Assembly (NCBI RefSeq): GCF_040958095.1
Contig: NC_091214.1
Location: 6,984,600 to 7,048,599 of the forward strand
From: Procambarus clarkii
Taxonomy: Eukaryota > Arthropoda > Malacostraca > Decapoda > Cambaridae
Direction of reading: 5' to 3'
Length of the DNA: 64,000 nucleotides
Every line of letters begins with the position of its first letter. Positions within the stretch are counted from its first letter, which is position 1. Below are positions 15,801-53,100 of the stretch, piece after piece. Both the position numbers and the translations under genes were made by a program. A model generated the notes under the pieces. The model had not been told where the DNA came from and searched no databases. It was given only the letters and a program-made list of their open reading frames with translations.

Positions 15801-18800
15801 GCAGTTCCTGTTGACATTTACTCTACCTTGAAAGGTAGAGTACATTTTACTCTACCTTTCCAGAACTCCTTTGAAAAGAGAACATGGCCTACGAAGACTA
15901 GCAAAGGCTCGCCCAAAAGAGTTAAGTTGAACCACAGTCCAAGAACATTCCCCCCCCCCCCCGGTCGCATATAATCCTGTACAGGAACGGTTAAAGCACA
16001 ACACAGACCTATTAGTGTCCCTGGAGTTCCTATACCAAATAGTCTCCAAGGTACTGTGCTCAATATCACAACTTGGAATGTATTAAAATCTAAAGAAGGT
16101 AGAATTAATGGCCGGTATGAATGAGGAAGGACTTAACATGAATGATAAAATGATGGCACTCCCAGTAATTTGTGGAATAGGCTCCCCCACAGTAACACTA
16201 TGTTGACAATTGCCTAATTTTGTGGGTTGCTAGGCCCCCTCAGGAAGACATTCCTAAATACGTGTCTAAAGGTAGATAACGATCTCACCATGCCCACAGG
16301 AAAGAAAGATTGCTTGGTAACAATCTATTAAAAAAAACTCCCACACTCATAACAAATGATCTTGCTCTCTGACATTTACTATAAGATCCTATACTTTCGT
16401 TGGATAGAAGCAAGGATTTACACCAACAAAATACTAGGCAGGAATTAACACTGGTGGAACAGTTAATATTACACACAGAACTCTGGTACACCCCATCAGT
16501 ACCATATTCTCTTCCAGGTCACTTTACTTGCTACAAAACTGTGAGTGAGCTGAAAGTTCCATTTATAACCTACTTAATAAAAATATATAACCACGGTGGC
16601 AGATATATAAAGGAATGAACTTAACTGAGAGTAAATTATGCTGACCAACTAGACAGGTGCTGTACAAGAATGTAAGAACTCTTGTACCTGTATATATAAA
16701 TAAATAATTTTTTTATTTTTTTTTTATTTTTACATGCAGAGCATGCAAATTAAGTACAATAAAAATACAGAATACATAAAGGAAAACAATAGACCACTGG
16801 CCAGAAGGGCCGACAGCATAGCACAACAAAACAGCATAGCACAACAAAACACATACACAAGAAAAACATGAAAAATACAGCATACATCAAAGCACAAAAC
16901 AGAATACAATGGCAATCCAGCAATCACAGTACAAAACAACACCTCCAGAAAAACAAAACATACAACAAGAGGCATAGCAGGAAACAGAACAGTGCAAACA
17001 CAAGACTGTCCAAACACGTACAACAGGTAAAGCAACATAAAATCAATACATTAATAAAAAAAAACACACACCAAGCCATCCGCCCCTTAAACAAAAGGCG
17101 AGGCCAAAATAAACAAGTACAACAAACACGCACACCTGAAAACAAAACAGGCATAAACACAACAACTAGCCTGAAGGACCAAGAATGCAACAACAAAGTA
17201 CATCAAGAAACAAACTAATTAATACACAACCATACAAAGTCACAAAACACCGGCCTGAAGGGCCGACATCAAAAACACAAGAAAACAAAAGAAAAAATAC
17301 AACAAAACATCACAACACCACACCAAACACACAGCAAGCACACAGACTACGAAAAGATCTCATACTTGTCCGGCCACTCGTCCGCCGGGAAGCGAATACA
17401 ATACGCCTCCCAAAGTAGCATAATGTCCTCCGAAACATGGTCACTATTGAGCGTACGAGGATCAGGCATTAACTCCGGCACACCTACAATAAAACACTTA
17501 GCCCGACGAATCCAGATGGTAGAAGGGCACCACGGATCAGGACGCACACGGTCAACAATATCAAAACTCAACGGATGGTCAGCATCATTCGCCACTCCGG
17601 AGGCCAAGATGAGAGGGAGAGGCACCTTCCCATGAGGCTGGGCAATGGGCAGCACACTGGGAGCCTCCTCAGCTGCCTCACAGGGCCCCTCGTCACCACC
17701 GAACATTGTATCTGCTGGGCCCCCCACGCTTGGCATCCTTTTTCAGCACCAGCTTGATGCCTCGGCTCGCACCAGGATCCACACCATCCACGCCTGTAGG
17801 AGCAACCACCTCCCACTGCGGAGAACCTTCTGCAGGAGAAAGAACAGGAGGTAAATTAGACGCACAATCATCAACAGCTGACACATGGACATCAGCCACC
17901 ACCAGCGTCGTAGAGCACGAGGCACCCGGAATCGCCACACCATCTCCCGAAGCTCCACCCGCGTCGTAGTCCTCCATATCAGCCCAAGCAGTAGAAGAGC
18001 GCCTAGAACGCTTGGGCACTGGCCGCACATCCTCACAGCCTTAGGCGGACCCAGAACCACGGCCCTCACGAACCGGGCGAACCCGTCGGTGCCCATCGCA
18101 GTACTGCAGCAGCCTCAACCACATGGGGAACCGGGCCGCACACAACAGGATGCTCCGCAGCCCCCCCAACACCCAGCACAGCCGGAACACCTGGCGAGGG
18201 TGCAGGACCAGGCGCAGCAGCAGGAGTCGAGGAAGACGCAGACGCACTCGGCTGAGGGACAACAGGCACCGGGGGCATGTCGGGTGACGCAGGAGGGGCC
18301 GCATCAGCAGCGACTGGGACCTGCTCCACTTCATCTCCGGAATCCACGCCCTGAGGGAGCGGCGAGAAATCCTCCTCCCGGAATAAGTTAACGGGTGCAG
18401 CAGGTGTCTCAGAGCACCCGGCAGCCTGATGCCCCAACTGGCCACACCGGAAACAAGTACGGGGCTGCCGGGCATAGTACACCCGAACGTAGTAGCCCAG
18501 CAGCCGGACAGAAGATGGGATATCCGACCGCAGGCGCATACCTAATGTACGGACGTTCGTCTGCTTCCCAGCATACTTCCCCGAGGACAGCTTGTTCACC
18601 CGCACACTGAAGACTACACCATACCTTCCGAAGAAGCGCCGGAGAAGGTCTTCAGGGAACTCCAGGGGCGCACCGTGCACACTGACATATGTCAGGGCAC
18701 CACTTCGGTCCGAGATCGTAACGGAGCCGGCGCCATCCGGCAACTGCAATGAACGCCCCTCGTTCCGCCGGAGAAAATCCCAATACTCATCCTCCCCCAC

Positions 18801-50100: not shown

Positions 50101-53100
50101 ACCAAATTATTAAGTACACCTAGTAGTTTTCACATCACTACTTGATCATACCGCCTGCTGCACTGCAAACCAGTAGCACACTCAACGGCCAACCCTTGTG
50201 TTTCTTTCTATAAAATCTTGTTTCCCTGAAATAGACCACCTTGGTCGTAACAGTCCACCATCACCAGTCGGACACAATTGAAATTAAACGCACGATGGGA
50301 ATGTGTCCACGTGTCATACCAACCTTCTCTTAACAAATATCTTATTTCCACTAACACTTTACTTAATACAAATTATTTGTTTTTATTTATAATTTTGAAT
50401 GCAAGCATGCGTATAAAAACAATAAAACGAGAACAAAACAAACAGAACACAAAACACAAATTACAGAATCACAAAAGTACAAAATGACAAATACACAAAA
50501 TACCAGCCTGAAGGGCCGACAACAATAAACACAAACACAATGCAATACAGTACAGAAATAACAACGTACAAGACATGAGGGTAATGTTAGCCTGACACGC
50601 ATGCGCATAAATACAATAAACCGAGAACATAACAAACAGAACACAAATCACAAATTACAAAGTCACAAAAGTACAAAATTACAAAGACATAAGATACCGG
50701 ACTGAAGGGCCAACAACAAAAACAACAAAAAGCACAAACAAAATGCAATACAGTACAAAAATAACAACAGAACAATACACAGTACCCAAACTCTCACCCA
50801 ACCTTCGAAACTACACAAAACAAGCCTACCGGCCCTGGAAATCACACACGGAGAGGTACCGAAATCACACACGGAGAGGTACCAGTACATAATGACAATA
50901 AGAAGAAAGGAAACATAAAAATATAACACATAAACAAAAGGAAATTAACATCGGCAATTCATGATAATGGGAACAAAAACAGACATGGCCACACAAGCAG
51001 CCCGAAGGGCACGGAACCACTCCAAAAACAAGCAGACTCCGGAACTCACAGGAACATGAAATACGGAGCATGCAGGAACCGGGAAAACAAACCCGGCCCA
51101 CCCACACACACACGCAACCTCACCCCGCGTCCATGCACGCAAACGGACACAACCCCACAACACATAGCAAACAAAATATATCACTTGAAAGGAGAACAAA
51201 CCTCAATGGTAGGTGAATATTTCTCAGGGAACTCAAACACAGGATATTTCTGCTTATAGGCCTTCCATATAAAATACTCCATTTCGGTAGGGGAACGATT
51301 CCCCTGCTTCAGGGTGGGCGCATAAACTCATGAATCACTAAATCAGGCGGAAACGGCCGCTCCCTGAGTTGGTCACAGAAGTCGCATAACGAGGTAGGGG
51401 CTGGCAAACCACCTCCGCCGTGGAATCAGAAGATACCGAAGAAGCGTACGTAGGCCGCCGAGACGGCCTCGCCACCGGATGCACAAGAGAAGGCGAAGGC
51501 TGCCGAGACGGTAACACCACACCCGACACCGCAGGAGATGCAGAAGAAACAGCCTGAGACGGGAGAGTCGGTAAAACCGCCGCCGATGAAACAGGGACCG
51601 AGGTTGGGGTTACGGAACCCCCAGAGCAAGCAGCCTTTTTCAACACCATAACCAGGTCACCACGCTTACCATGAACCTCATCAGGGGGAACTACCCCACA
51701 CGAAGAACCGGAACCATCCGACGAGGGCGACGCACCCGAAGCAAGGTCCACAGGCACCACACCTGAAGGGAAGTCCGAGACACTGTCACCGTCAGCGGGA
51801 GGCACAGGTACTTACTTCTGCCACCACCGTAGAATGTGACGCAACCGGAACCACCCCGCCATCGCAGGAAGATCTAGAGTCATCGAAATCTCCCACATCA
51901 ACCCAGGTAGAAGAAGAAGAATGCCGGGAACGCTTGGGCTCTGGCCCCACATCATCAGATCCGGAGGCCGACCCAGAGACGCGGCCATCACAAGCCGGGC
52001 GAACCGACGCTCTCCCCAGGACGGCAGCATCCTCAACCACATGGGGTACCAGGCCAGGCACAGTAGGAGGCCCTGCATCCACTCCAGCACCCAGCACAGC
52101 CGGAACACATGGCGAGGGCGCAGGGACATGCACAGCAGTTGGAGAAGACGACGACGACGTACAGAGATCCACCGGAAGACCCATGGGACCATCAAGGACA
52201 CTAACGGGAACAGGCTGATCATCCGAAGGCACCATAATCCCCTGGAAGAAGGGCCACCACAGCAGGAGACACGTAGCGTGCCACAGGCGGGGGCCCCCAG
52301 CAGCCAACGGGATGGCCACATCCCCACCCACCAAATCCTCCTCCACAGGGAGCGGTGGAAAATCCTCCTCATGGAAGAGATTCACGGGGGCGATGACAGC
52401 CTCAGAACACCCCAGCAGCCTGATGCCCCAGCAGGCCACACCAAAAACATGTCCGCGGTTGATGGGAATAATACTCCCGAATATAATATCCGAGGAGCCG
52501 GACAGAATGTCTGCCCTCAGGCGCATCCCCAGGGTCCGAATGTTCGTTCATAAACCCTGGAACTTTCCCGAGAAAAGCTTGTGCAGCCTCAGATTGACGA
52601 CAGCTCCACACCTCCCTGAAGTATCGCCGCAGGAGGTCTTCCGGAAACTCCAAGGGCGCCCCATAAACACTCACGTACTTCAATGCACCACTCCGATTGG
52701 AAATCTCCACAGTGCTGGCACCACCTGGCAGGGGCAAGGATTGCCCCTCGAAGCGCTGGAGAAACGGACAGTACTCTGTGTCCTCCGCAAATTTGACAAT
52801 TGCTCGATGAGCGGTAACCAGACACGGAGCATGTCACACATTACATGTTCTACCTCAGGATACCCGGCATGGCCAGAAAATTCCAGGCCTACAGAGTGCA
52901 CACGCACAACAGAGGGAAGAGGACACCCCATCACGGAGCGTCACCGACGAAAACCCAAGCACCACTTGATGGCCAATGCAAATTAAATGATATAATGTAC
53001 TGGTTGCTTACAACTTAATTACTAATTTGCATAAAAACTCCAAACCAGCCAGTGGTTTATATTTTACAATTTAGTTATGTTCAGGCAGGGTTGCATGCTG

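What the first reader, a model, noticed from the sequence alone, without database searches (positions are those of the whole stretch)
16708..52978. A gag-only non-LTR-like retroelement family (three insertions, no pol)
Seen: G1, G2 and G3 each encode one gag-like ORF with a single CCHC knuckle and a conserved C-terminal module (CPSTIW ... WEAY ... PEKY), followed directly by a GT-rich 3' UTR and A-rich tail. Target duplications of 13 bp (G2) and 7-10 bp (G1, G3) are present. All three lack RT. Known: mammalian HAL1 elements are ORF1-only L1 derivatives moved in trans. Inference: this may be an arthropod analogue with its own conserved C-terminal domain that I do not recognise.
Basis: partly seen in the sequence, partly recalled or inferred. 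Interest (0 to 1): 0.75.

Follow-up and report, generated by a model that had tools for sequence, protein, structure and literature searches.

The report
Gag-only half-LINE family in an arthropod
Three copies of a jumping gene that encodes only an RNA-binding 'gag' protein and no copying enzyme belong to a large, recently active family in this animal genome, which probably borrows its copying enzyme from complete elements that still live beside it.

Summary
Three minus-strand insertions (19135-16708, 22591-19757, 52978-50376) carry a gag-like coding region, a GT-rich 3' UTR and an A-rich tail. All three gags are frameshifted and G3 lacks CPSTIW. Paralogous flanks in the window give empty sites for G2 and G3. 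The own genome (4.03 Gb) gave 14,886 first-look candidates; 89 of 150 scored G1-type copies have open frames of 537 codons or more. In 26 of 27 copies read, only 350-1,079 nt separate the gag stop from an A-tract, so gag-only is the normal form of the copies sampled. A related complete LINE exists: its ORF1 is about 60% identical to G2 and 50% to G1 gags and ends 65 nt before an APE-type endonuclease; 26 copies have an unbroken 1172-codon ORF2 behind it. That ORF1 lacks the C-terminal module and its 3' UTR does not align with G UTRs, so G elements are not simple deletions of it. Best reading: a gag-only LINE lineage moved in trans, comparable to HAL1 and HeT-A but dispersed and with its own gag C-terminus. 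Donor enzyme inferred; the LINE's RT was not read.

The parts
16708..19135 (-). G1: gag-only element, 5' start GAGTTCC, frameshifted gag, A-rich tail
   Evidence: the start GAGTTC is shared by 6 of 20 G1-type loci
18378..18974 (-). G1 gag N-terminal domain with CCHC knuckle (intact stretch)
   Evidence: (PF00098 E 1.4e-4, over its cut-off)
17350..17682 (-). G1 gag C-terminal module CPSTIW...WEAY...PDKY, stop at 17347-17349
   Evidence: no Pfam or PDB match; G2's module no NCBIfam match
16731..17346 (-). G1 GT-rich 3' UTR with CUUC-loop hairpins, ending GCATGCTCTGCATGTAAAAATAAAA
19145..19154 (-). G1 5' target duplication TTATTTATTT (3' copy 16698-16707)
   Evidence: read directly
19757..22591 (-). 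G2: gag-only element of a second subfamily
21897..22454 (-). G2 gag N-terminal domain (knuckle start, then frameshift)
   Evidence: 41% identical to G1
20593..20910 (-). G2 gag C-terminal module
   Evidence: 47% identical to G1
22592..22604 (-). G2 13-bp target duplication AATTATGAAATCA (3' copy 19744-19756)
   Evidence: empty site in the G3 paralogous flank
50376..52978 (-). G3: gag-only element of a third subfamily, several frameshifts, no CPSTIW
52979..52985 (-). G3 7-bp target duplication TAATTTG (3' copy 50369-50375)
   Evidence: empty site in the G2 3' flank

Best explanation
G1, G2 and G3 are members of a dispersed family of gag-only non-LTR retrotransposons (half-LINEs). The element RNA starts near its own 5' end, is translated into one gag of roughly 540 to 630 residues (RNA-binding N-terminal domain, CCHC knuckle, low-complexity linker, C-terminal module), and ends in a GT-rich 3' UTR with an A-rich tail. 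The gag probably coats its own RNA. A LINE-encoded endonuclease and reverse transcriptase, supplied in trans, most likely by a complete LINE with a related gag, nick a Y|A site and copy the RNA by target-primed reverse transcription, giving mostly 10-18 bp duplications. Shown: gag-only structure of the copies read, insertion with duplications and empty sites, many long open frames, constraint on the gag N-terminus, and a co-resident LINE with homologous ORF1 linked to an endonuclease and an unbroken ORF2. Inferred: RNA coating, the identity of the donor, and that the donor's ORF2 carries an RT.
For: Family and open frames: 150 of 150 scored at 95-100% identity; 89 of those 150 with an open frame of 537 codons or more and no stop inside the match. 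Gag-only: 26 of 27 loci. Mobility: TSD at the element ends in 17 of 20 G1-type loci (10-18 bp in 14, 40 bp or more, the script's ceiling, in 3), reciprocal empty sites. Constraint: N-terminal dN/dS 0.10 at dS 1.4 between G1 (L010) and L013rc, a copy met by chance, and 0.083 for L010 against L038. Complete LINE: L044 ORF1 homologous to the G gags, EN hit 65 or 68 nt after ORF1 in 46 of 110 scored copies, 26 of 27 unbroken 1172-codon ORF2 tails preceded by that ORF1 at 3,185 nt; in 25 of those 26 the ORF1 frame is 466 or 481 codons. Both kinds have GT-rich 3' UTRs.
Against: The LINE's RT domain was not read; it is assumed from a 1172-codon ORF2 that begins with EN, and no hit of the RVT_1 list (top 150 of 278,426 candidates) was tied to it. 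Its 3' UTR does not align with any of seven G 3' UTRs beyond composition (z 0.1 to 2.5), so a shared recognition sequence is not shown. Its insertion-site preference was not measured. Copies were picked by best protein match and mostly for long frames, so gag-only share and within-G1 dN/dS are biased. No expression data.
Confidence: 0.8

Rival explanations
1. The G elements are recurrent internal-deletion derivatives of several complete LINEs, formed anew in each subfamily, like independent half-L1s, with no long gag-only ancestry.
For: In the unrooted tree the LINE gag L044 groups with G2 and not with G1, so gag-only status need not have a single origin. 3' UTRs of G1-, G3- and G2-type elements are mostly not alignable (z 0.1-1.8 in the G1/G3 against G2 pairs, 1.1-4.0 between G1-type and G3-type), as if acquired separately. 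G3-type gags lack CPSTIW.
Against: G1, G2 and L013rc share a C-terminal module (36-54% identity) that the LINE ORF1 lacks: the L044 reading frame ends without it, 65 nt before EN, and 110 scored copies align to that ORF1, nearly all to its last residue. No LINE whose gag carries the module, or whose 3' UTR matches a G UTR, was met, but few LINEs were read.
Confidence: 0.32
2. The donor of enzyme is not the 1172-codon LINE but another poly(A) LINE of the genome, with no need for gag relatedness.
For: Other LINEs with long ORF2 frames are present; G elements have plain A-rich tails that a relaxed enzyme could use.
Against: Of the LINE ORF1s read, only that of the 1172-codon LINE is clearly homologous; L043 matches G1 weakly around the knuckle (30% over 53 aa, E 9e-5) and L040 not significantly; the L042 gag was not in the stretch read. 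The 1172-codon LINE has at least 26 unbroken ORF2 copies and a GT-rich 3' UTR.
Confidence: 0.3
3. The three are truncated or deleted copies of a complete LINE whose other copies carry EN/RT after the same gag.
For: A complete LINE with a homologous gag does exist.
Against: 26 of 27 G copies read end 350-1,079 nt after the gag stop; the LINE gag is only 49-61% identical to G gags and ends differently.
Confidence: 0.05

Closest known systems
HAL1 (half-L1) of mammals
   Same: Encodes ORF1 only, poly(A) tail, TSDs, depends on a full-length LINE (passages of PMC5322556)
   Different: Here ORF1 is of the CCHC-knuckle kind, most subfamilies have a C-terminal module absent from the LINE relative, subfamilies are deeply diverged, and the LINE 3' UTR is not shared. 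About 2,100 human copies are quoted; here I have 14,886 first-look candidates, which is not a copy count
HeT-A of Drosophila telomeres
   Same: Arthropod gag-only non-LTR element with no RT; co-resident TAHRE has a closely similar gag plus pol (passages of PMC5537684)
   Different: HeT-A is telomere-only in head-to-tail arrays; the G hits are scattered along contigs and have TSDs
Type I LINE ORF1 (RRM plus CCHC)
   Same: CCHC knuckle after a possible RRM-like fold (definition from passages of PMC4120745)
   Different: Single knuckle and an additional C-terminal module with no library match

Membership tests
Non-LTR retrotransposon (TPRT product) | A-rich 3' tail, TSDs, no LTRs | tested here: met
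   TSD at the element ends in 17 of 20 loci; empty sites for G2 and G3
Gag-only (half-LINE) class | ORF1-like gag without EN/RT in most copies | tested here: met
   26 of 27 loci; sample picked by protein match, not random
Gag-only (half-LINE) class | Co-resident complete LINE with homologous ORF1 | tested here: met
   EN and unbroken ORF2 shown, RT domain not read
HAL1 | ORF1 of L1 type (coiled coil, RRM, CTD; PF02994) | tested here: not met
   zf-CCHC families (and one sub-threshold unrelated family) only, no PF02994, in G1 and G2 N-termini
HAL1 | Simple derivative of a LINE by loss of ORF2 | tested here: inconclusive
   the related LINE lacks the C-terminal module and an alignable 3' UTR, but other LINEs were hardly read
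HeT-A | Telomere-only, head-to-tail arrays | tested here: not met
   hits scattered along contigs, TSDs present
Type I ORF1 | CCHC knuckle | tested here: met
   (PF00098, over its cut-off for G1, under it for the frameshifted G2); for the LINE
Type I ORF1 | RRM directly before the knuckle | tested here: inconclusive
   weak matches to DAZL, TDP-43 and SPEN RRM chains (E 0.035-0.17, mostly profile positions 98-134) and PABP (E 0.29); no RRM family in Pfam; AlphaFold models too poor to use (mean pLDDT 45-46)
Trans-mobilised element | Movement depends on a LINE ORF2 | not testable with these tools
   needs a cell assay

The most novel reading that the evidence does not exclude
The gag-only elements form one ancient lineage, marked by a C-terminal gag module that no enzyme-bearing LINE read here has (and that the G3 type has partly lost), which has split into at least four subfamilies while remaining without pol. 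Its gag would act in cis, selecting its own RNA (perhaps through the 3' UTR hairpins) and recruiting a relative's ORF2, so that a non-autonomous LINE persists on its own account and may outlast its autonomous relatives.
Probability: 0.35. Interest if true: 0.68.

Novelty: new variant of a known kind. Interest (0 to 1): 0.52.

Why it matters
Non-autonomous LINEs that keep a coding ORF1 are few in the literature I could reach (HAL1, HeT-A). A dispersed, recently active gag-only family living beside a complete LINE with a homologous gag gives a natural test of why an element would keep gag and lose pol: whether gag works in cis on its own RNA, and how ORF2 is shared between elements. It also warns that abundant 'gag' ORFs in such gene sets may be transposons.

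Tried and rejected
Gag relatives in IMG/VR viral contigs: none confirmed. Pfam, NCBIfam and PDB for the C-terminal module: nothing. AlphaFold on two-row alignments: mean pLDDT 45-46, not used; no fold search run. LINEs read first (L040 I-like, L042 Nimb-like, L043 Jockey-like; names from my own recognition) had other gags or none in view. L041 proved to be an LTR element and was left aside. The 3' UTR hairpin (UCGGCC-CUUCA-GGCCGG): 49 of 286 loop sites have stems of 5 or more pairs in 27 G1/G3-type UTR stretches, against 0 of 55 in four G2-type UTRs, 1 of 556 and 5 of 941 in flanks, and a mean of 4.7 of 318 in shuffles. But many are copies of one site, and with arms dealt out among the 25 distinct instances 175 of 2,000 shuffles did as well, so covariation is not established. 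Homology of G1 and G2 3' UTRs: not supported (z 1.0). L1-type target TTTT/AA: not seen; sites read Y|A, with A as first TSD base in 17 of 17 and a pyrimidine before it in 16 of 17, the non-A before it being forced by the method. A deletion origin straight from the LINE found: not supported.

Literature: the listings (none found in the last) showed me no paper naming a gag-only LINE in crustaceans. I read only passages of PMC5322556, PMC5537684, PMC10454600 (whose text holds 'ORF1' and 'nonautonomous' nowhere) and PMC4120745. Bao and Jurka 2010 on HAL1 is not held.
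Full report
WHAT WAS CHECKED. The window lies at G000:C65:6984600-7048599 of a 4.03-Gb assembly in 2308 contigs. The size and the roughly 100 long contigs seen suggest a decapod, perhaps a crayfish; that is my inference and no call names it. The three insertions are real and all on the minus strand: G1 19135-16708, G2 22591-19757, G3 52978-50376. Each has a gag-like coding region, a 3' UTR of 74-78% G+T and an A-rich tail. All three coding regions are frameshifted. G1 has its knuckle, LVLKKD and CPSTIW motifs in three frames, and G3 has no CPSTIW.

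INSERTION. The flanks of G2 and G3 are paralogous to each other, so each segment carries the other's empty site. Joined across the duplicated target, the G2 flanks align, with small gaps elsewhere but none at the junction, to the stretch at 53.0-53.4 kb, and the G3 flanks to 19.45-19.76 kb. The duplications are 13 bp (G2), 10 bp (G1, read) and 7 bp (G3).

THE FAMILY. A search of the own genome with the G1 gag N-terminus gave 14,886 first-look candidates; the 150 scored are all 95-100% identical. Of these, 89 of 150 have an open frame of at least 537 codons without a stop in the match (numbers taken). I fetched 20 with flanks, chosen mostly for long frames, and 7 further copies from the G2 and G3 searches. 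In 26 of these 27 the gag stop is followed by 350-1,079 nt and then an A-tract, with no room for EN and RT; in the 27th (L034) a GT microsatellite hides the end. L001-L008 and L029-L032, short loci given by the searches, were not counted: L001 and L029 are the window's own G1 and G2, and L030-L032 end before any tail. Of the 20, 16 read through to the C-terminal stop in one frame.

HOW COPIES BEGIN AND END. In the 20 G1-type loci my script returned a TSD for 18. One (L015) lies far from the element and I discount it, leaving 17 of 20: 14 of 10-18 bp and 3 at the script's ceiling of 40 bp; two of those three, L017 and L022, are one duplicated site. The first TSD base is A in 17 of 17 and the base before it a pyrimidine in 16 of 17. 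The 3' end reads TTTGCATGCTCTGCATGTAAAA in 18 of 20 (L011 and L022 differ). 5' ends fall on two recurrent points: GAGTTC in 6 of 20 and GAGTGTTG in 9 of 20, the other 5 elsewhere (read by eye). In the longer copies the base before AGTGTTG is C, while the short copies have G. A cap-derived extra G at an internal start site would explain this, but that is inference.

SELECTION. Between G1 (L010) and L013rc, a fourth gag-only copy that I met by chance in a flank, the N-terminal domain has dN/dS 0.10 at dS 1.4; between L010 and L038 it is 0.083. G1-type against G2 gives 0.24-0.32 at near-saturated dS. The C-terminal module gives 0.18-0.79 and the linker 0.41-1.34. Values within G1 (0.18 as a ratio of summed pN to pS) are biased low because copies were ranked by protein match. 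The module is 47% identical between G1 and G2 and 36-47% between L013rc and the others. It has no match in Pfam, the PDB or, for G2, NCBIfam.

THE GAG. The only firm domain is the CCHC knuckle. The N-terminal profile matches several RRM proteins weakly, mostly at positions 98-134 (DAZL, TDP-43, SPEN; E 0.035-0.17). This fits the type I ORF1 plan of RRM plus CCHC described in PMC4120745 (passages) but does not prove it.

A COMPLETE RELATIVE. Endonuclease hits (PF03372) in the own genome include a class with open frames of 1172 codons. The 1.2 kb before one of these (L044) holds an ORF1 whose RRM2/knuckle part is 58-61% identical to G2 gags and 49-53% to G1- and G3-type gags and L013rc. This ORF1 stops 65 nt before the endonuclease match. 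Searching with it, 110 candidates were scored. I compared them with 107 of the 150 EN rows, picked by eye as the class with matches of about 655 nt, leaving out 43 rows of other lengths: 46 of 110 have the EN at 65 (45) or 68 (1) nt. Searching with the end of ORF2 (L045), 27 of the 150 rows lie in an unbroken 1172-codon frame, and 26 of those 27 have the ORF1 exactly 3,185 nt upstream (I gave the script 29 of the 110 ORF1 rows). In 25 of these 26 the ORF1 frame is 466 or 481 codons, in one 385. So a LINE with ORF1 homologous to the G gags is present in at least 25 copies with both frames long. Its ORF1 lacks the C-terminal module. Its 3' UTR is GT-rich too (81% G+T over 355 nt) but aligns with none of seven G 3' UTRs tested. 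Its RT domain was not read.

ORIGIN. In an unrooted tree of the RRM2/knuckle region the LINE joins G2, apart from G1, G3-type L038 and L013rc (support 1.0 on the dividing branch). Without a root this allows either one gag-only origin (root on the LINE branch), favoured by the shared C-terminal module, or at least two. I lean to one origin, but weakly.

COMPARISON. HAL1 and HeT-A are the closest known systems. The G family works like them, but it is not HAL1 by membership (no L1-type ORF1) and not HeT-A (not telomere-bound, has TSDs). Hence a new variant of a known kind.

LIMITS. The sample of copies was not random. Trans-mobilisation, the donor enzyme and any function of the 3' UTR hairpins are inferred. 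Hairpin covariation did not pass a permutation test (175 of 2,000). First-look candidate numbers (for example 22,813 for the LINE ORF1, 2,902 for its ORF2 end, 4,879 for the L013rc module) depend on the query and are not copy numbers, so whether G elements outnumber the LINE is open.

Noticed in passing
window 8846-14566, minus strand: A LINE with RT (PF00078) and RNase H (PF00075) matches and a gag-like stretch upstream, broken into several frames; looks Jockey/I-like to me.
   Followed up: partly
window 55914-56498, minus strand: ORF with a YVDDIF motif that resembles a Penelope-type RT fragment; recognised by eye, no Pfam RT match.
   Followed up: no
window about 19.4-24.3 kb and 50.0-54.0 kb: Paralogous segments that flank G2 and G3: a duplication older than both insertions.
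   Followed up: partly
window 24927-28012: Long strand-biased repeat region with very long open frames on both strands that look spurious.
   Followed up: no
L013 about 1-2660, minus strand: A fourth gag-only subfamily with a 613-codon open frame and a variant C-terminal module (NTIWVP...LLWEAF...FPGKY); 4,879 first-look candidates for its module.
   Followed up: partly
G000 C67:785374-798436 and C18:576890-585882: Evenly spaced hits of the complete LINE (some ORF2 ends about 5.28 kb apart; ORF1 hits about 2.76 kb apart), suggesting tandem copies.
   Followed up: no
G1-type 3' UTRs, e.g. window 17266-17250 and 16813-16797, minus strand: Repeated small hairpins with CUUCA or CUUCU loops; the loop core CCTTCNG occurs 1-4 times in each of 27 G1/G3-type UTR stretches, not always with a full stem, and not in the G2-type UTRs tested.
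   Followed up: partly
L009-L028, 5' ends: Two recurrent 5' start points, the shorter with a G that the longer form does not template; possible alternative start site with cap-derived G.
   Followed up: partly
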